Assembly: GCF_008632075.1 (NCBI RefSeq)
Contig: NZ_VWVM01000002.1
Coordinates: forward strand, 193,462 to 257,461
Direction of reading: 5' to 3'
Length of the DNA: 64,000 nt
From: Candidatus Pantoea gossypiicola
Lineage (GTDB): Bacteria > Pseudomonadota > Gammaproteobacteria > Enterobacterales > Enterobacteriaceae
Shown here: positions 9,803 through 16,550 of the stretch, piece by piece
Position numbering within the stretch: position 1 is the stretch's first letter
Layout of the letters: each line of letters begins with the position of its first letter
Made by a program: the position numbers and the translations under genes
The notes under the pieces: generated by a model
Database searches by the model: none
The model's input: the letters and a program-made list of their open reading frames with translations, nothing else
What the model was told of the DNA's origin: nothing

Positions 9803-10594
9803 TCAATCTCGCAGAGGGAAGAACTGCGCCGCTTCAGAGAGCGAGTGCAGCAAAGTGGTGTCCTGGGGCGATCCGATCCAGACGGCCAGTGCGCTGAAAT
9901 TATCCTGCTGCCCCTGATCTGACTGATCGTTTTTGATGATTTGCTGCATCAGCGTCAGCCACTCTTCCGGCGTATTCACCATGTGCAGTGACTGCTGCAT
10001 CTGCTCCAGCGTCACACCGTGCCAGAAACCATCGGTGCAGAGCAGAAAGGCATCGCCATCCTCAATCCCGACCACGTCGCTGTAGCTGGCGTCGCGCTGC
10101 TCATCACCCATTCCCAGCGCAAAATAGAGCAGATTGCTGTTGATGCCTTCGGTGCGATGTCCGGCATCTTTCATCTGCTGTACCAGGCTGTGGTCGGTGG
10201 TGACCAGATAGAGATAGCCGCGGCGGAACAGATAAAGGCGGCTGTCACCGGCATGCGCCCAGCAGGCAAGGTGGTAGTCGCGGTCGATGAACAGGCTGAC
10301 CAGCGTGGTTCCCATCCGACTGTGCTCGCTGCTGGCTTTCTGCTGCTGCCGGATGGCGTGATTCGCGTGATTAACGTAGTTGCGAATCGACTGCGCATTG
10401 AGGTGCGCATCCCCATCAAACGCTTCCAGCAGGCTGCTGCGGGCGATCGCGGCCGCCCTGTCGCCGCCGGGAAACCCGGCCACACCGTCGCACACCACAA
10501 AACAGGCGGAGCGCTTACCGATGACATCACCGATCTGATCCTGATTACTGGCGCGATCGCCCTGATTCGACGTCGAGGCAATAGTGATATTCAT
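9803..10594 (-). CDS. pppA: T6SS PP2C-type protein phosphatase PppA
   Basis: 263 aa. PP2C metal-binding motifs are present in order: VVCDGVAGFPGGD near residues 34-46, CWAHAGDSRLYLF near 110, LLCTDGFW near 183 and QDNFSALAVW near 230. In the threonine phosphorylation pathway it reverses the PpkA phosphorylation of the FHA protein and so switches the T6SS off. The start overlaps the tagH stop by 4 bp (ATGA). Confidence 0.94.
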   Translation of the reverse strand: MNITIASTSNQGDRASNQDQIGDVIGKRSACFVVCDGVAGFPGGDRAAAIARSSLLEAFDGDAHLNAQSIRNYVNHANHAIRQQQKASSEHSRMGTTLVSLFIDRDYHLACWAHAGDSRLYLFRRGYLYLVTTDHSLVQQMKDAGHRTEGINSNLLYFALGMGDEQRDASYSDVVGIEDGDAFLLCTDGFWHGVTLEQMQQSLHMVNTPEEWLTLMQQIIKNDQSDQGQQDNFSALAVWIGSPQDTTLLHSLSEAAQFFPLRD

Positions 10595-12450
10595 GCGTCA
10601 TCCGTGTGGGTTTGTGAGTCTTTGTACTGATTAACTTCCAGGTCATAGGCGTGCAGAAACGCTTCACCAAACAGGGTGTGGAAATCGTCTTCGATCTCGC
10701 CCGCCGTCTCACCGTAGCGCTCAACAAAATGCTCCCACAGTGCCGCCTTGCGGCTGCCCGGCAGGCCGATACGGGAAACCGACCCCGCCTGACGCGCCTC
10801 CTCTTCCAGCTGCTCCGGATTAAAGGATTGCAGCATTGAGGCGATGATGGCGCGGATACCGGCGATCATGCCCAGCTGGTGCGCCTGCAAATCGATCAGC
10901 GCATCCCGCACCGCCTGACGCGGTGGCATAAAGCCCGGCATCCGGCTGCCGAACATCTGCATCAGGACGGTTTTACCCGATGGCAGCAGCTTGAAGGGGT
11001 TATTGGCGTCGTCGAGGATCACCGTCATGTCGGCCTTAACGCCGCGCTTAAGGATCGAGCGCGATGACAGCAGTGCGACCGTGCCCTGCGAGAACATGCT
11101 GAGCATCTGACCAAACTGCAGCATCTGCTCGCGGTCAAACTGCGGCGTTGGCTGCAGATCGCGCAGACCCATGCCTTCCAGCAGCGCGTCCAGCAGTTCA
11201 CCTTTCAGCGCATCGCCGCTGCTCTGGCTGGATGTGGAGGGCTGCACGGCGGCGGCATGCTGGTGACCCGAGGCAACCGGATCAATGCGCAGCCGCCCTT
11301 TCGGCGTCGGTGAGGGAGTACGCTGCACCGCCTGGGGTGTCGGCAGCGTAATGCCGCCGTAGTCGTTTTGCGGATTAACCGCATCTGTCTGACCGGATTC
11401 CGCCTCATCCGCCAGCAGCGTCTGGCGCGGGGCCTCACTATGAGGCTGGTCATCAACGGGTAAGTCGATGCCGTTGAACAGCGGTGAGTGATCCATTTCG
11501 TTCACACTGACGGGAGCCTGCTCAGGTGAGCGTGCGGCAACCGGCTCAGGCTTTGTCTCTGGCTGAGGCGGCACATGCAGCGTCGCCGGTTTCGCTGGCT
11601 CCGGCTGCGCCAGCGGCACCGCGTTCCCCATCATCAGTCCTAAGGGATCATCATGGTTGCGCACATCCGCACTGCTCTCGCCGTCGAACAGGCTCAGTGG
11701 ATCCAGTTCAGCGGTGGGCGCTTCAGACTGCTTTGGCGCGCTGGGCTGCTGAGCTGACAGCGTGCTCGGCGTGCGGTCGTCAAAAATGCTCTGCTGCGCG
11801 AACAGCGCATCGCCGTCGTCAAACAGGCTGCTGTTTTTGGGCTGCTGACCGTAATCCAGCGGCGCATCGTTGATCAGCTGTGCCAGTGGATCTTCCGGAT
11901 TGCGGTCTGGCATAGCGGGCGCGGTCAGCGGATGGGCATCCGGCATCTCCGGCACGGCTTTGCGTTTAGAGAGATCGTCGGAAATCGAAAACTCTTTCGC
12001 CAGGCTGTCCCAGATTTCGCTGGGGATGGCGGCGGTGGTGCTGGCTTTTTCGGCTACAGGTTCACGAGGAGCCGCGGCAGGCTGGACCGGCTCCGGACGC
12101 GGAACCGCCCTTTCAGCCTGCGGTTGCTGTGCACTGTTGAGATCGCTGACCAGCAGCTGATAATCATCGATGCCCAGAATGTCCCCATCCTGCAGCTCAA
12201 CCTGACGACCGCGTTCCAGCGGAATATCGTTGAGCAGCACGCGCGTCACATTGCCACGATTAGTCAGGCGACACTCACCGTTCGCGGTGATGTGCACAAT
12301 GGCCTGCAACCGGGAGAGCGTTCGGTCGTCATCCGGCAGCACCAGATTGTTATCCACACCGCGACCAATGGTGCCGCCGGGCGGGAAAAAATCACAATGA
12401 GTTTGCGGCGGCTGTTGGCCGGGTTTAGTCGTTATTATCGTAAAGCGCAT
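10591..12450 (-). CDS. tagH: T6SS FHA-domain scaffold TagH (Fha)
   Basis: 619 aa. The N-terminal FHA domain (about 1-105) shows the phosphothreonine-binding pattern GTIGRGVDNNLVLPDDDRTLSRLQA and the closing LNDIPLERGRQVELQDGDILGI. A long, low-complexity Pro/Gln/Asp-rich middle (about 115-390) follows. The C-terminal T6SS-specific domain (about 410-619) contains EGMGLRDLQP and AFLHAYDLEVNQYK. TagH is the target of PpkA. It is the first gene after the AT-rich cargo island and is translationally coupled to pppA. Confidence 0.93.
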   Translation of the reverse strand: MRFTIITTKPGQQPPQTHCDFFPPGGTIGRGVDNNLVLPDDDRTLSRLQAIVHITANGECRLTNRGNVTRVLLNDIPLERGRQVELQDGDILGIDDYQLLVSDLNSAQQPQAERAVPRPEPVQPAAAPREPVAEKASTTAAIPSEIWDSLAKEFSISDDLSKRKAVPEMPDAHPLTAPAMPDRNPEDPLAQLINDAPLDYGQQPKNSSLFDDGDALFAQQSIFDDRTPSTLSAQQPSAPKQSEAPTAELDPLSLFDGESSADVRNHDDPLGLMMGNAVPLAQPEPAKPATLHVPPQPETKPEPVAARSPEQAPVSVNEMDHSPLFNGIDLPVDDQPHSEAPRQTLLADEAESGQTDAVNPQNDYGGITLPTPQAVQRTPSPTPKGRLRIDPVASGHQHAAAVQPSTSSQSSGDALKGELLDALLEGMGLRDLQPTPQFDREQMLQFGQMLSMFSQGTVALLSSRSILKRGVKADMTVILDDANNPFKLLPSGKTVLMQMFGSRMPGFMPPRQAVRDALIDLQAHQLGMIAGIRAIIASMLQSFNPEQLEEEARQAGSVSRIGLPGSRKAALWEHFVERYGETAGEIEDDFHTLFGEAFLHAYDLEVNQYKDSQTHTDDA

Positions 12451-12746
12451 AACGGATTCCTGCGGTTAGCGGTTCGGCATCTATACCGCGCACCTCTCGG
12501 GGAAAGGCGCGGGGTATAGGGAGCAGGGAGTTTAATTTTGGAGCTGAGTTTATTTAAATTAGTAATGCCGGATACGTTACTTAAATTGACAGAGTGACTG
12601 GTTAATAAATTAAATCCACTGCGATGGGAATTAATTCTTAATTAAAGAAGCATGCAGCATAATTCCGAATCAGAAAAGACAGCATATCAGAAACGAATAA
12701 GAGTAATTTTTTTGAATTTTAAACAGACATAAATCTTTCTGGGTAA
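12451..12746. other. AT-rich gene-free stretch upstream of tagH
   Basis: About 300 bp without a credible gene, lying between the tagH start and the end of the LprI-like gene. It is visibly more AT-rich than tagH and belongs with the cargo island in composition. A promoter for the tagH-to-vgrG half of the locus may lie here, but no clear -35/-10 pair could be assigned by eye. Confidence 0.5.
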
Positions 12747-13139
12747 TCAGTAAGGTAGTTGCTTCAGAATTGCAGTGCGTTCCTTATCGAGACGGTCAAT
12801 ACAGAAATTCATGACACTCACATAAGCATCGCTGCCCTCTTCAGCGGCATAGGCTTCCAGCCTGAACTGACTATCACGGTATTTAAGCCAGTGGCGCTGA
12901 GTATCAAGGAAGGCACTTCGGTACTGGCTGAACTCCTGATCATGGCCTTTATAAAAGTGCTCGATTCGGTTCTTCGCCGCTTTATACTCTTTATTTAAAG
13001 TCAGCTCAGACTCTATTTTATTTTTTTCTGCACATTCATTAACTTCCTGAGTGTTATTCCCGTTCGAACAATCACTCATCGCCTGGACGGAGGAAACATA
13101 AGAAGCTAAAACGCATAGCAGTAAATAAAAATATTTCAT
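12747..13139 (-). CDS. Exported LprI/DUF1311-family protein, putative lysozyme-inhibitor-like immunity protein
   Basis: About 130 aa from the ATG at 13137-13139. The signal peptide is MKYFYLLLCVLASYVSSVQA. The mature part has the DUF1311/LprI pattern: a cysteine-containing NTQEVNECAEK motif, a helical KEYKAAKNRIEHF segment, then AFLDTQRHWLKYRDSQFRLE and a late MNFCIDRL cysteine. Members of this family inhibit lysozymes or sit beside peptidoglycan-targeting toxins. It follows the Tai4-like gene by about 19 bp in the same direction. A periplasmic immunity or general anti-muramidase role is inferred. Confidence 0.75.
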   Translation of the reverse strand: MKYFYLLLCVLASYVSSVQAMSDCSNGNNTQEVNECAEKNKIESELTLNKEYKAAKNRIEHFYKGHDQEFSQYRSAFLDTQRHWLKYRDSQFRLEAYAAEEGSDAYVSVMNFCIDRLDKERTAILKQLPY

Positions 13140-13158
13140 CAGAAACTTACCATTGATA

Positions 13159-13524
13159 TTAACTTTTATTTTTATATCTTTCGTAAAGCATCTTAGCATC
13201 CTGGCTTTGCGAAAGTAATGTGCATTTCATCATATTGAAGTTACCTGATACCGAGCCGGTCAGGTTCATCTTCAGATACGCATTAATCAACTTATCACCA
13301 TCACTGAATGCTTCAACAGGGAGGTGGCTTACCTCTAACCAGGCTGATGCACTTTTAAAGGCATCATCGGTGAAGGCCTTGTCAGTCGAAGCCTTACCTG
13401 CACAGCGGTTCAGAAGCCAGTTCCTGAAAATCTGCGGTTGCTTAAAGGCGTCTGGGACCGGAGACGTTATCGCCAGCACTGCAGGAGAAAACGTCAGAAC
13501 GAATAACATCAGGACTTTTTTCAT
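13159..13524 (-). CDS. Tai4-like T6SS amidase immunity protein (orphan)
   Basis: 121 aa from the ATG at 13522-13524; a GTG four codons earlier is also possible. The signal peptide MKKVLMLFVLTFSPAVLA predicts a periplasmic protein. The mature part resembles the Tai4 family: NWLLNRCAGKASTDKAFTDDAFKSASAWLE, a DKLINAYLKM segment, and a closing GNFNMMKC with the second cysteine. Tai4 proteins neutralise the Tae4 DL-endopeptidase effector. No Tae4-like gene is visible in the window, so this looks like an orphan immunity gene in the cargo island. The family call was made by eye. Confidence 0.72.
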   Translation of the reverse strand: MKKVLMLFVLTFSPAVLAITSPVPDAFKQPQIFRNWLLNRCAGKASTDKAFTDDAFKSASAWLEVSHLPVEAFSDGDKLINAYLKMNLTGSVSGNFNMMKCTLLSQSQDAKMLYERYKNKS

Positions 13525-13677
13525 TTTAGTATCCACAGGGAAGCGACATCAGGGACACACTGCCATAATCTGCGCATTCAGGAAGCGACAGGTATCAGAA
13601 CAGATATTGCTTTTTCAGGGTGTCACATGCACTCGGATATTACTGAAGCCATCTCCATGATCATAGTTAAGCACATA

Positions 13678-14091
13678 CTAGTTATAAAAATGACGCCAGA
13701 TAATAAAACCTAAACCTCCGCCAATCATCATTACCGCAGTCACCATATTTAAAGTATGAAGGCGTATTAGCCAGCCTATTTCTTTTTCAGGTAACGATTG
13801 AATAAAATCATAAGTCTCCTGGCTAACGCTCTCCTTACCTCTACGCTGAAGTTTCACACCTTTATATAAGCGTGCAAACCAGGAAATTTTCACAGGATGG
13901 AATGATGGACTGAAAAAGGAGCTAACCTGAGTGCTGAAATCAAGATCCAATCTTCTTTTACGAAACTCGCCAATTAATGATTCATAGTTTTGAACATTTT
14001 TTCTGAATATTATGTAGCCTACAATTTGCAAAGCAATCGAACTCAGAAAAGACATCACTGACACAGCAATCAAAATGCAAGGCCAGGTCAT
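13678..14091 (-). CDS. Membrane protein, putative T6SS immunity protein (paralogue 2)
   Basis: 137 aa. A long hydrophobic N-terminal segment (about 5-28) and a second near the C-terminus (about 112-132) enclose a basic soluble loop. It is the same length as the preceding gene product (14110-14523) and matches it over the FRxNxxxY, LDxxTxV, KGxKxxR and ExVSxxxYxFxQxxP positions, so the two are diverged paralogues. Two transmembrane segments and a place right behind the effector gene fit an inner-membrane immunity protein. No named family recognised. Confidence 0.75.
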   Translation of the reverse strand: MTWPCILIAVSVMSFLSSIALQIVGYIIFRKNVQNYESLIGEFRKRRLDLDFSTQVSSFFSPSFHPVKISWFARLYKGVKLQRRGKESVSQETYDFIQSLPEKEIGWLIRLHTLNMVTAVMMIGGGLGFIIWRHFYN

Positions 14092-14109
14092 AAAGTCTTA
14101 TCCATAGCT

Positions 14110-14523
14110 TCAGTTAAATACATAAATAAAAATAGCCATAAAAAAAGCCCAGACAACTGTCAGAAAAAAAGTAAGCTGGTAAAGATAGAGCGTCTTTTCC
14201 ATCCAAACCATTTTGTCTTTAGGTTGTTTTTGTACAAATTCATAGGCCTTTATGCTGACATTTTCAGATTTAGAAAAGCGCATTTTCCGCCCTTTCCTGA
14301 GATTCATGAAAAAGGCTAACTTCTGATAATTAGCATAGAACCCCAAATGATTTGCAACTTTCGTGGTTAGGTCTAATTGCAAGCCAGCATTTTGATAAAG
14401 ATCGATAAAATCCTGATACGCCTTTCGATTAACTCTAAAGAACCACGCAGCATAGACATGCAGAAGAATAACCAAAACAGATAAAATCACACTGCCATAC
14501 ATAAAAAAATCATACAAACTCAT
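14110..14523 (-). CDS. Membrane protein, putative cognate T6SS immunity protein (paralogue 1)
   Basis: 137 aa with hydrophobic segments at about residues 8-31 and 112-135 and a basic loop between them (LRKGRKMRFSKSENVS). Its start overlaps the stop of the effector gene (14520-14523), so it is translationally coupled to it. That is the usual arrangement for an effector and its cognate immunity protein. It is paralogous to the next gene (13678-14091). Membrane immunity proteins are known to guard against pore-forming T6SS effectors. The function is inferred from position and topology. Confidence 0.78.
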   Translation of the reverse strand: MSLYDFFMYGSVILSVLVILLHVYAAWFFRVNRKAYQDFIDLYQNAGLQLDLTTKVANHLGFYANYQKLAFFMNLRKGRKMRFSKSENVSIKAYEFVQKQPKDKMVWMEKTLYLYQLTFFLTVVWAFFMAIFIYVFN

Positions 14524-15512
14524 AAAATCTTATCCATTAAAATGCCTGCCCCTTTTTCACCCAGCTTAGCAGCACCAAAACCACCTGCAGCGGATCCGAC
14601 TATTCCACAAGCTAACGCACCTATACCTCCGGTTGCAACACCCAGTGCTACGCAGGCAGAAGTTGCGATTGCACCCGCCGCCGTGCCGCCCAGGATACCT
14701 GCAGTCGTGCTTGCTGCAAACTGAGAATACCCTTTCACCGCTACTTTTGAGCATTCTTCTTCTCTTTCAGTGGTACAGCTGTGATAAACCTCATTCGTTG
14801 TATTCACAGCACTAAATCCTATCGAAACCCATCCACCCATTTTCATAAATTTCGCTGCTTTGGCTGCACTATCGACATAGGTCGAATAACCACGTATTAC
14901 TCCTGTGCCAGCAGTTTGCCAGTCATGAATAATAGATGAGCTGGAAAGGTTTAAAGCATGCTTAATTTTTTCATAGGGGCGCAAGTTCAACATAAATCGG
15001 GATAAACGATTCAGTAATACTTCAACTTCACCAAACAGGCGTTTACGCTCGATAAAAAACTGCTGCCCGAACAATGTTCCTGATGTCAGATATTGGTTAC
15101 GGTAGGCATTCTCAATAGCGACAAGTTTCTTGCCAATTTCATTGAAATAGCGCTCTCCCGCATCGCCGATGATACCTGATGCTTTATCCATAAAATTGGT
15201 AATAGCAGCAATGGAAGCATAATGGCGGTTAAAGAAATCAGCCTCATCAACGGTCAGATGAGTGACACTATTATTGGTTCTGGATTTAGCTTCTTCCAGC
15301 GTGCGCATGGCTGCCGGGTGATTATTACCATTCGGATCGGCAACGATTAAAATCTGGCCGGGTTTAGCCCATGCAACATCAGCATTTAATTGCAAAAAAT
15401 AGTTCGCGGCAGACATATTGCGCGTGCCATAAAGCCACATTGCCTGCTCAGTCAGTCTTCCTGGACGCTGAACAACACAAAATCCCGGCTCAATTGAGTT
15501 TTTCTCAGCCAT
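14520..15512 (-). CDS. Putative membrane-acting T6SS effector linked to hcp
   Basis: About 330 aa from the ATG at 15510-15512, which has a strong AAGGAGG ribosome site six bases upstream. The N-terminal part (PGFCVVQRPGRLTEQAMWLYG to AWAKPGQILIVADPNG, residues 10-65) looks LysM-like, a feature shared by a broad group of T6SS cargo proteins. The middle is helical and charged. The last 70 residues are a glycine/alanine-rich hydrophobic zipper (GILGGTAAGAIATSACVALGVATGGIGALACGI in short GxxxG steps), which suggests membrane insertion. There is no signal peptide, as expected for T6SS cargo. It lies just downstream of hcp and is coupled to a membrane immunity candidate. A pore-forming mode is inferred. 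Confidence 0.75.
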   Translation of the reverse strand: MAEKNSIEPGFCVVQRPGRLTEQAMWLYGTRNMSAANYFLQLNADVAWAKPGQILIVADPNGNNHPAAMRTLEEAKSRTNNSVTHLTVDEADFFNRHYASIAAITNFMDKASGIIGDAGERYFNEIGKKLVAIENAYRNQYLTSGTLFGQQFFIERKRLFGEVEVLLNRLSRFMLNLRPYEKIKHALNLSSSSIIHDWQTAGTGVIRGYSTYVDSAAKAAKFMKMGGWVSIGFSAVNTTNEVYHSCTTEREEECSKVAVKGYSQFAASTTAGILGGTAAGAIATSACVALGVATGGIGALACGIVGSAAGGFGAAKLGEKGAGILMDKIL

Positions 15513-15584
15513 AACAACCTCCTTTTGCAATTAAATGTTCGAAACGTATAACTATTGCATCTGATTCCTTGAATTTTAATGAAG

Positions 15585-15609
15585 ATACGCCCCCTTTTCG
15601 GAGGCGTAT
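15585..15609 (-). terminator. Hairpin between hcp and the effector gene
   Basis: ATACGCC and GGCGTAT arms (7 bp, extended by two more G-C pairs after one mismatch) enclose a short loop just after the hcp stop. The following minus-strand tail is only moderately T-rich, so partial termination is likely. That would let hcp be made in excess over the downstream effector and immunity genes. Confidence 0.5.
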
Positions 15610-15613
15610 TTTA

Positions 15614-16096
15614 TTAAGCTTCTTTATTGCCTTTGATGTCCCAGCCAGCGCTGCTCTCTGCGCCTTTGCCGCCGGAAGAACTCTGCTCCCAGTACTGCTG
15701 CTTCACTTTGGATGCCTGGAAGGAGTAGGTCATTCCCAGGGTATCGCCGTTGTCGGAGCCATTGTAATTCACCGCGGTCACCAGAACGTCTTCCAGGGTG
15801 ATGCGCGCATACTCGACCTGAGAACCGCCCGCTTTACAGATAGAGAGTTCAACTTTAGTGAGATGCTTACCGCTTGCGCAGTTCTTCAGCAGCGCAGTGG
15901 TGGATTTGTCGATCAGTGCATTCACGTGCAGGTCGTTGAAGTTAACTTTACCCGCACCGCCGCCGCCGCCCACAGACATGTTGCCTGGCTGAGAAGCACC
16001 CCATGAGAAAGAGGTAATATCAGTCCAGCCAGTGTGGTTAGAGTCTTTAGATTCGCCGGTGACACCGTCGACCTTCATAAACATATCAATAGCCAT
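15614..16096 (-). CDS. hcp: T6SS tube protein Hcp (TssD)
   Basis: 160 aa, the standard Hcp length. It starts MAIDMFMKVDGVTGESKD and contains the conserved ITSFSWGASQPG, LVTAVNYNGSDNGDTLGMTYSFQASKVKQQYWEQ and closing AGWDIKGNKEA. Hcp hexamers stack into the secreted inner tube and also act as a chaperone for small effectors. It has its own upstream gap of about 240 bp and a hairpin behind it, consistent with separate, high expression. Confidence 0.98.
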   Translation of the reverse strand: MAIDMFMKVDGVTGESKDSNHTGWTDITSFSWGASQPGNMSVGGGGGAGKVNFNDLHVNALIDKSTTALLKNCASGKHLTKVELSICKAGGSQVEYARITLEDVLVTAVNYNGSDNGDTLGMTYSFQASKVKQQYWEQSSSGGKGAESSAGWDIKGNKEA

Positions 16097-16337
16097 TATC
16101 TTTCACTCTTTATTGGTTGAGATGATTGCTTTCAAAAAAAGCAAGGATATGGCAAAAAGAAAAGCATGGGGCTGAATAAAACAGTCCATATTTTACCTTT
16201 GCCTTGCTTCTGAAATATCGTCATAAACCATATTTCAGATAGTGCATTGCCGGGCACCAGACCGGGCAATGTATTTAATCAATTGTCATGATGAGAAATT
16301 GAGGTTCTGACCGGTTATTCAGGAAGCAGAAAAGCGC
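16097..16337 (-). promoter_or_regulatory. Upstream region of hcp with two inverted repeats
   Basis: A 241-bp gap in front of hcp. It holds a perfect 8-bp inverted repeat, TGAAATAT at 16211-16218 and ATATTTCA at 16230-16237, and a second imperfect one (CATTGCC at 16245-16251 with GGCAATG at 16265-16271). The latter could end the upstream transcript or stabilise the hcp 5' end. An hcp promoter here is inferred; the -35/-10 boxes were not assigned. Confidence 0.4.
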
Positions 16338-16550
16338 TCAATAAATTCTTCTTAGCTTATCCGCTGCCCAATAAAAACCTAATGATGCAGTGACTGAAAG
16401 AGTAATCAGAATGCCGTTAATTATTTCCCCCATCATCGTGACATTCCAGTCAAAGACGAAGAGGTAATAACCTGCGCATGTGAATAAAATCAGGGCTGAA
16501 ATAAAAACCAGCAGATAACGGAGTAAATACAGAGCTAATTTTTTAACCAT
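16338..16550 (-). CDS. Small inner-membrane protein between tssC and hcp
   Basis: 70 aa from the ATG at 16548-16550, chosen because GGGAGGA lies eight bases upstream. Two hydrophobic segments (ALYLLRYLLVFISALILFTCAGYYLFV and GILITLSVTASLGFYWAADKL) with basic ends predict a two-pass membrane protein. It is more AT-rich than its T6SS neighbours, like the cargo island. I recognise no family. The position between tssC and hcp suggests an accessory role or a small immunity-type protein. Confidence 0.6.
   Translation of the reverse strand: MVKKLALYLLRYLLVFISALILFTCAGYYLFVFDWNVTMMGEIINGILITLSVTASLGFYWAADKLRRIY

What the first reader, a model, noticed from the sequence alone, without database searches (positions are those of the whole stretch)
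13678..15512. Putative membrane-acting T6SS effector with two tandem paralogous membrane immunity proteins behind hcp
A 330-aa protein with no signal peptide, a LysM-like N-terminus and a long glycine-zipper hydrophobic C-terminus is encoded right after hcp. It overlaps a two-TM 137-aa protein, and a second, diverged 137-aa two-TM protein follows. Matching positions (FRxNxxxY, LDxxTxV, KGxKxxR, ExVSxxxYxFxQxxP) show the two are duplicates. Membrane immunity proteins usually guard against pore formers. The duplicate may protect against a sister-strain variant of the toxin. I do not recognise a described effector family for this trio.
Basis: partly seen in the sequence, partly recalled or inferred. 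Interest (0 to 1): 0.75.

Follow-up and report, generated by a model that had tools for sequence, protein, structure and literature searches.

The report
Injected membrane toxin with spare antidotes
This Pantoea gene island most likely encodes a toxin injected into rival bacteria to damage their inner membrane, with its own antidote and a spare antidote that matches the toxin variant of a sister lineage; this is a prediction from sequence comparison and nothing was tested at the bench.

Summary
The three genes are real. The 330-aa protein belongs to a large, mostly unnamed family in Enterobacterales, with distant relatives in Marinobacter and on Vibrio plasmids. In the window's clade it sits behind hcp (11 of 12 loci); in another clade some members are fused to PAAR. 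Of 86 distinct homologues, 85 are followed at once by an ORF of 105-175 aa, and 82 of these 85 have a hydrophobic helix at each end. I read it as a T6SS effector acting at the inner membrane, probably an alpha-type pore former, with imm1 as antidote.

It is 24% identical to imm1 but 68% identical to the front antidote of another Pantoea (G043), whose toxin is 88% identical over residues 1-240 and 46% over the last 90. In this clade antidote divergence follows the toxin's C-terminus (not so in the PAAR clade). The island also holds Tai4, LprI-type and Sip6-like antidote genes.

Orthologues were noted in 2011 and 2014 as weakly colicin S4-like. It is neither Ssp4 nor Ssp6; PIX membership was not testable. 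Delivery, pore and protection are untested.

The parts
14520..15512 (-). Effector candidate, 330 aa
   Evidence: family; no Pfam or NCBIfam family
15333..15485 (-). Residues 10-60 of the effector: LysM-topology subdomain
   Evidence: AlphaFold model, strand-helix-helix-strand, pLDDT 86-92 in blocks 11-60; profile comparison weak, 26%
14523..14702 (-). Residues 271-330 of the effector: variable C-terminal segment that co-varies with the adjacent antidote
   Evidence: DNA homology to G043 stops at 14701; co-variation at residues 281-330
14110..14523 (-). imm1, 137 aa, two hydrophobic helices, front (cognate) antidote candidate, 4-nt overlap with the effector
   Evidence: 93% and 85% identical partners beside the closest effectors
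13678..14091 (-). imm2, 137 aa, two hydrophobic helices, orphan antidote of the G043/P. wallisii toxin type
   Evidence: 68% and 60% identical to front antidotes of G043 (L005) and P. wallisii (L006), 24% to imm1; absent in G016
13159..13536 (-). Tai4-family antidote gene without a Tae4 in this genome
   Evidence: PF16695, 57.3 bits; no PF14113 match in G000
12747..13199 (-). LprI-family (lysozyme inhibitor) gene
   Evidence: PF07007, 45.8 bits
16338..16550 (-). 70-aa two-helix ORF between tssC and hcp, Sip6-like orphan antidote candidate
   Evidence: 53% identical to the ORF overlapping an Ssp6-like gene in G044; no Ssp6-like match in G000
15614..16096 (-). hcp (tssD), the likely carrier
   Evidence: PF05638, 126.4 bits; TIGR03344, 59.0 bits, just over its cut-off of 58.9

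Best explanation
The 330-aa protein is a T6SS cargo effector that travels with the Hcp encoded just upstream. In the periplasm of an injected neighbour its helical C-terminal half inserts into the inner membrane and depolarises it, most likely as an alpha-type pore. imm1 sits in the producer's inner membrane and neutralises the toxin by recognising its C-terminal end. The last 60 or so residues of the toxin and the overlapping antidote gene behave as one exchangeable cassette behind a conserved front part. When a new cassette came in, the former antidote (imm2) stayed behind it, so the strain should still resist relatives that carry the older toxin type. Shown by computation: the constant pairing, the T6SS linkage, the co-variation of toxin C-terminus and front antidote in the hcp clade, the homology break inside the toxin gene, and the match of imm2 to another lineage's front antidote. 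Inferred: delivery, membrane insertion, pore, neutralisation, cross-protection and the direction of replacement.
For: Pairing: 85 of 86 distinct effectors have an adjacent ORF of 105-175 aa, 82 of 85 with a hydrophobic helix at both ends; among ORFs of that size in the loci, partners and spurious frames included, 176 of 918. T6SS linkage: hcp in 11 of 12 loci L001-L012; PAAR motif over the Pfam cut-off in 3 of 6 long forms; the window's cluster has TssBCFGHKLM over NCBIfam cut-offs. Co-variation, 18 hcp-type pairs: antidote with effector 241-330 given 1-240, partial r 0.45, 0 of 2000 permutations; reverse 0.16, 211 of 2000; 59 pairs of the shorter forms: 0.34 (0 of 2000) and 0.06 (194 of 2000). 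Break: G045 and G043 are 90.6% identical in DNA into effector codon 271, then no match until imm2. Orphans: 8 of 8 full-length extra antidotes in the 18 hcp-type loci are closer to another genome's front antidote than to their own. Four Cys invariant in 85 of 85 homologues fit action from the periplasm.
Against: No toxicity or secretion data. The C-terminal half is unresolved in the model (pLDDT under 50 over nearly all of 171-329). Sequence comparison with colicin pore domains is weak (20%). In the 25 PAAR-type pairs the N-terminal part co-varies more (0.56) than the C-terminal part (0.31), and in the 59-pair set windows 1-20, 21-40, 81-100 and 161-180 also reach 0 of 500 permutations. The permutations do not correct for phylogeny. 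In the antidote the loop at 61-82 co-varies more than either helix (0.58 against 0.36), which does not favour recognition by the helices alone. Many homologues lie away from T6SS genes. 'Best of 17 others' favours others over own.
Confidence: 0.7

Rival explanations
1. An envelope effector that does not form a pore: the LysM-topology N-terminus binds peptidoglycan and the rest has an unrecognised enzymatic or lipid-disrupting action; the membrane partner blocks it at the membrane.
For: LysM topology at residues 10-57. A two-helix membrane antidote does not prove a pore: Imm-Act1 of the Salmonella effector Tox-Act1, from a paper whose title names lipid-targeting activities, also has two transmembrane helices (PMC12994826, passages).
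Against: No enzymatic family found by Pfam or NCBIfam or in the families shown for 50 homologues. The co-varying C-terminal end of the hcp clade is small-residue rich and hydrophobic.
Confidence: 0.18
2. imm2 is a decaying remnant, or both antidotes act together on the one toxin, and imm2 gives no protection against sister variants.
For: Antidote fragments exist: 61 aa in L002, 107 and 65 aa in L010, 68 aa in G020.
Against: imm2 is full length, is 81% identical in G045 and 68% in G043, stands intact behind another toxin in G054, and is missing in G016 while the toxin and imm1 remain.
Confidence: 0.15
3. The pair is not T6SS cargo but a stand-alone bacteriocin or toxin-antitoxin pair that happens to sit behind hcp.
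For: In many loci no T6SS gene is next door, and homologues with a partner ORF lie on plasmids.
Against: Recurrent place behind hcp and PAAR fusions. Ssp4 and Ssp6 are T6SS-delivered though encoded away from the cluster (PMC12669606, PMC6889166, passages). The same slot holds Tae4 in G020 and a pesticin-like protein in G054.
Confidence: 0.07

Closest known systems
hcp-island proteins Pvag_1032, Pat9b_2515, PANABDRAFT_2446 and N454_00628 (PMC3235180, PMC3942780)
   Same: Probably direct orthologues: At-9b and P. ananatis LMG 2665 carry 74% and 72% identical proteins; named there as hcp-island, weakly colicin S4-like (passages)
   Different: The passages seen describe no antidote, no family beyond Pantoea and no C-terminal exchange; locus tags were not verified here
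Ssp4-Sip4 family (PMC12669606)
   Same: 331-aa helical T6SS pore former acting from the periplasm, Hcp-dependent, small downstream membrane antidote
   Different: No sequence relation: 331-aa gene located in Serratia ilv loci gives no hit with this family's profile, hhalign probability 0.1%; Sip4 has four helices
Ssp6-Sip6 family (PMC6889166)
   Same: T6SS pore former with a two-helix antidote, sometimes beside hcp (passages)
   Different: Unrelated in sequence (hhalign 0.08%, using Ssp6-like proteins assigned by size, place and a small overlapping two-helix ORF); Sip6 is 67 aa
Colicin-type pore-forming domain and membrane immunity proteins
   Same: Helical toxin half with a membrane antidote; weak profile similarity (20%, 51 columns)
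   Different: No Pfam colicin hit; delivery is by T6SS here; immunity helix number differs (recalled: three or four in colicin immunity proteins)
TpeV-TpiV (PMC8386463)
   Same: T6SS toxin that depolarises cells, broad family near hcp and vgrG, several Cys (passages)
   Different: TpiV has a Sec signal and is periplasmic; TpeV has 11 Cys; no sequence comparison was made
Immunity gene arrays by effector displacement in Vibrio cholerae (PMC5361080)
   Same: New toxin-antidote modules displace old toxin parts and leave old antidotes downstream (passages)
   Different: Here the exchanged piece appears to be only about the last 60 residues of one membrane toxin plus its antidote

Membership tests
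T6SS effector-immunity pair (general kind) | Linkage to a T6SS carrier component | tested here: met
   hcp in 11 of 12 loci; PAAR motif fused in 3 of 6 long forms
T6SS effector-immunity pair (general kind) | Adjacent antidote-type gene | tested here: met
   85 of 86
T6SS effector-immunity pair (general kind) | T6SS-dependent secretion, toxicity, relief by the partner | not testable with these tools
   Bench work needed
Ssp4-like family (PMC12669606) | Sequence homology to Ssp4 | tested here: not met
   No hit of the 331-aa ilv-locus proteins at E up to 10 with filters off; hhalign 0.14%
Ssp4-like family (PMC12669606) | Four-helix antidote | tested here: not met
   Two end helices in 82 of 85 partners
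Ssp6-like family (PMC6889166) | Sequence homology to Ssp6 | tested here: not met
   hhalign 0.08% against 4 Ssp6-like proteins; their assignment to Ssp6 rests on size, place and overlap with a two-helix ORF
Colicin pore-forming domain (PF01024) | Profile match | tested here: inconclusive
   No Pfam hit; hhalign 20%, E 0.0011, over 51 columns against 12 colicin domains
LysM domain (PF01476) | Profile match over the gathering score | tested here: not met
   No hit for the window protein up to E 1; not among the 25 shown of 33 families for 50 homologues
LysM domain (PF01476) | Strand-helix-helix-strand fold | tested here: inconclusive
   Order of elements seen in the model with high confidence; hhalign 26%; the structure comparison did not cover this part
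PIX-domain polymorphic T6SS effectors (Carobbi et al. 2024, Cell Rep) | N-terminal PIX domain shared by effectors with different toxin domains | not tested
   Paper not held, no profile at hand. In held loci 124 ORFs have both halves of this family and the 11 N-only ORFs are 76-218 aa, short or split, but those loci were fetched with this family or its neighbours
Pore-forming toxin | Membrane depolarisation or conductance | not testable with these tools
   Bench work needed

The most novel reading that the evidence does not exclude
A family of T6SS membrane toxins in which the specificity unit is just the final 60 or so residues: this end and an overlapping two-helix antidote move as one cassette behind a fixed front half, the antidote recognises the inserted end at the membrane, and each extra antidote in a strain predicts the toxin variant of a neighbouring lineage.
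Probability: 0.4. Interest if true: 0.68.

Novelty: new member of a known kind. Interest (0 to 1): 0.5.

Why it matters
The comparison turns a guess into named, testable pairings: imm2 should protect against the native G043 (or P. wallisii) toxin and not against the strain's own. Because close relatives differ mainly in a short C-terminal end plus the antidote, the family offers a natural system for asking how a small membrane antidote recognises an inserted toxin. It also gives a role to a widespread protein family (300 database hits with one sequence and 650 with a profile, both from capped candidate lists) most of whose listed members carry no functional name.

Full report
What is there. 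The window lies in a T6SS cluster: TssH, TssG, TssF, TssC, TssB, TssM, TssL and TssK score over NCBIfam cut-offs, TagH and Hcp too, Hcp only just (59.0 against 58.9 bits). Between hcp and the FHA gene (tagH, 10591-12450) sits a low-GC island: 0.36-0.45 in the 500-base windows from 12500 to 15499, against 0.53-0.67 in the windows of the core on either side (15500-16499: 0.51 and 0.40). In reading order on the minus strand it holds the effector candidate (14520-15512), imm1 (14110-14523, 4-nt overlap), imm2 (13678-14091), a Tai4-family gene (13159-13536) and an LprI-family gene (12747-13199).

The family. The effector matches no Pfam or NCBIfam family. A single-sequence search gave 300 database proteins and a profile 650, each from about 8,000 candidates kept and with 120 listed, mostly Enterobacter, with Pantoea, Cronobacter, Kosakonia and others. 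It occurs in 28 of 147 relatives. The scan of species genomes gave 141 pattern matches, 115 of them relatives, of which 80 were kept as 78 loci: Pantoea, Erwinia, Enterobacter, Kosakonia, Serratia, Photorhabdus, Citrobacter, Klebsiella and other Enterobacterales, and two Marinobacter. Plasmid records add Vibrio relatives at 23-26% identity. hcp lies within the 4-kb locus in 11 of 12 close relatives (L001-L012; not in L006). Of six long forms scanned, L104, L107 and L127 have a PAAR motif over the Pfam cut-off and L114, L119 and L125 do not. Many of the other loci show no T6SS gene next door (read by eye).

The partner. From 98 full-length hits, 86 distinct effectors remained after removal of duplicates; partial and split copies had been dropped before that. 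For 85 of 86 an ORF of 105-175 aa starts within -60..+80 nt of the effector stop (exception L091), and 82 of the 85 have a hydrophobic helix near each end; L004, L054 and L055 lack the second one at my threshold. Among all same-strand ORFs of that size in the loci, partners and spurious frames included, the count is 176 of 918. Partner sequences fall to 6% aligned identity within the shorter forms while the two-helix plan stays, as expected of a fast-evolving antidote. The loop between the helices has on average 13.6 Lys/Arg against 1.2 on the two ends, more in 85 of 85, which by the positive-inside rule suggests ends outside and loop inside. Two partners show a third hydrophobic stretch in the loop (L073, L075), so the topology is not settled.

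Co-variation. In 18 hcp-type pairs antidote distance follows effector residues 241-330 given 1-240 (partial r 0.45, 0 of 2000 permutations), not the reverse (0.16, 211 of 2000). In all 59 pairs of the shorter forms the figures are 0.34 (0 of 2000) and 0.06 (194 of 2000). In 25 long forms both parts correlate, the N-terminal part more (C-part 0.31, N-part 0.56, both 0 of 2000); one form of 390 aa was in neither set. In finer windows the hcp-type signal is strongest at 281-330 (0 of 500), weaker at 241-280; in the 59-pair set windows 1-20, 21-40, 81-100, 161-180 and 261-330 all reach 0 of 500. In the antidote the loop 61-82 co-varies more (0.58) than either helix region (0.36) in the hcp set. 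The permutations do not correct for phylogeny.

The cassette. The window effector and that of G043 (L005) are 88% identical over residues 1-240 and 46% over the last 90, and their front antidotes 28%. G045 (L002; its contig length equals that of the Pantoea deleyi record) and G043 are 90.6% identical in DNA from hcp into effector codon 271; similarity returns at imm2 (72%) and, further down, at 97.6%; the window's own match to G043 stops at the same codon (14701). G016 (L003) is 89.4% identical to the window through imm1 (to 14094) and matches again from 13677, so imm2 is what it lacks.

Extra antidotes. The 18 hcp-type loci hold 11 extra antidote ORFs, a lower bound because some loci are only 4 kb; 3 are fragments (61, 107 and 65 aa). 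All 8 full-length ones are closer to another genome's front antidote than to their own: window 0.68 against 0.24; L002 0.69 against 0.25; L006 0.50 against 0.39; L007 0.92 against 0.32 and 0.71 against 0.28; L010 0.66 against 0.36; L011 0.83 against 0.27 and 0.91 against 0.39. Taking the best of 17 others favours others, but most gaps are large, and L007, L010 and L011 point at each other's front antidotes. G020 has three antidote matches and no effector match. This is the pattern of stored antidotes against rival variants rather than of local duplication.

The slot in sisters. In G020 the hcp slot holds Tae4 and Tai4 (76% identical to the window's Tai4) and then a 68-aa piece of an antidote of this family. 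In G054 it holds a pesticin-like protein (PF16754, 23.5 bits, under its cut-off of 25.8) and an LprI gene (38% to the window's), then an imm2-type antidote. In G061 two antidotes of this family follow hcp without an effector of the family in the stretch. The window's genome has no Tae4 match (one of six genomes tested has one, G020) and no Ssp6-like match (18 of 147 relatives do). The 70-aa two-helix ORF at 16338-16550 is 53% identical to an ORF that overlaps a 219-aa Ssp6-like gene between tssC and hcp in G044; that gene has relatives in 12 of 30 Serratia genomes. So the island seems to hold one toxin and antidotes to several toxins found at this place in relatives. Whether a pesticin-like toxin lies elsewhere in this genome was not searched.

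Mechanism. Four Cys (246, 254, 287, 302) are invariant in 85 of 85 homologues, which suggests disulfides and action from the periplasm; the antidote is a membrane protein by sequence, which points to the membrane as target. The AlphaFold model (50 sequences, mean pLDDT 55) is confident only for about residues 11-90 and resolves LysM-type order of elements at 10-57; nearly all of 171-329 is under 50. LysM proteins in vgrG loci were reported to help effectors bind VgrG (PMC10673891, passages), so a loading role of this part is plausible though sequence membership is not met. A pore is inferred from the location of the antidote, the small-residue-rich hydrophobic end and the older weak likeness to colicin S4; it is not shown.

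Known work. PMC3235180 and PMC3942780 (passages) list hcp-island proteins of P. vagans, Pantoea sp. At-9b, Pantoea sp. aB-valens and P. ananatis LMG 2665 as weakly colicin S4-like; At-9b and LMG 2665 carry 74% and 72% identical proteins; tags were not verified. PMC12669606 (outline, sections 11, 14, 29, part 1 of 15, and passages) describes Ssp4, whose 331-aa gene I located in Serratia ilv loci and found unrelated. PMC6889166 (passages) describes Ssp6. PMC5361080 (passages) gives the displacement model for antidote arrays. Surveys of Enterobacter and Klebsiella showed no account of this family in what I saw (PMC13185608 and PMC12469244, passages; PMC10763514, passages and sections 12 and 17). 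The PIX effector paper is not held and could bear on the N-terminal part; a homologue lies on a plasmid of P. agglomerans pv. betae 4188.

Verdict. The layout and the stored-antidote reading are well supported by comparison; the pore is a reasonable inference; nothing here is bench evidence. The kind is known (T6SS membrane toxins, antidote arrays); the family and its short exchangeable end are the new part.

Noticed in passing
window 16338-16550 (-): 70-aa two-helix ORF between tssC and hcp, a likely orphan Sip6-type antidote: homologues in 12 of 147 genomes (own included), and in G044 one overlaps an Ssp6-like gene; no Ssp6-like match in this genome.
   Followed up: partly
window 12747-13536 (-): Tai4-family and LprI-family antidote genes follow imm2; the matching Tae4 toxin is absent from this genome but sits in the same slot of G020.
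   Followed up: partly
L107, L109, L118, L119, L026, just upstream of the long effectors: A gene of about 157-189 aa ends directly before the long (PAAR-type) effectors; it may be a second spike-tip or loading protein.
   Followed up: no
L063, L072, L089, L103, L117, L172 and others: Split copies of the effector are frequent (11 ORFs with only the front part, 18 with only the back part among the held loci, duplicates of loci included), so the family also decays often.
   Followed up: no
L171 4752-6422 (Vibrio cholerae plasmid pW7G, IncC-typed): Distant homologue (26%) followed by a 127-aa ORF on a plasmid; the family reaches beyond Enterobacterales on mobile DNA.
   Followed up: partly
L170 3989-5393 (P. 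agglomerans pv. betae 4188 plasmid pPAB02): Effector homologue and a 134-aa partner away from T6SS genes on a plasmid, both annotated as hypothetical proteins.
   Followed up: partly
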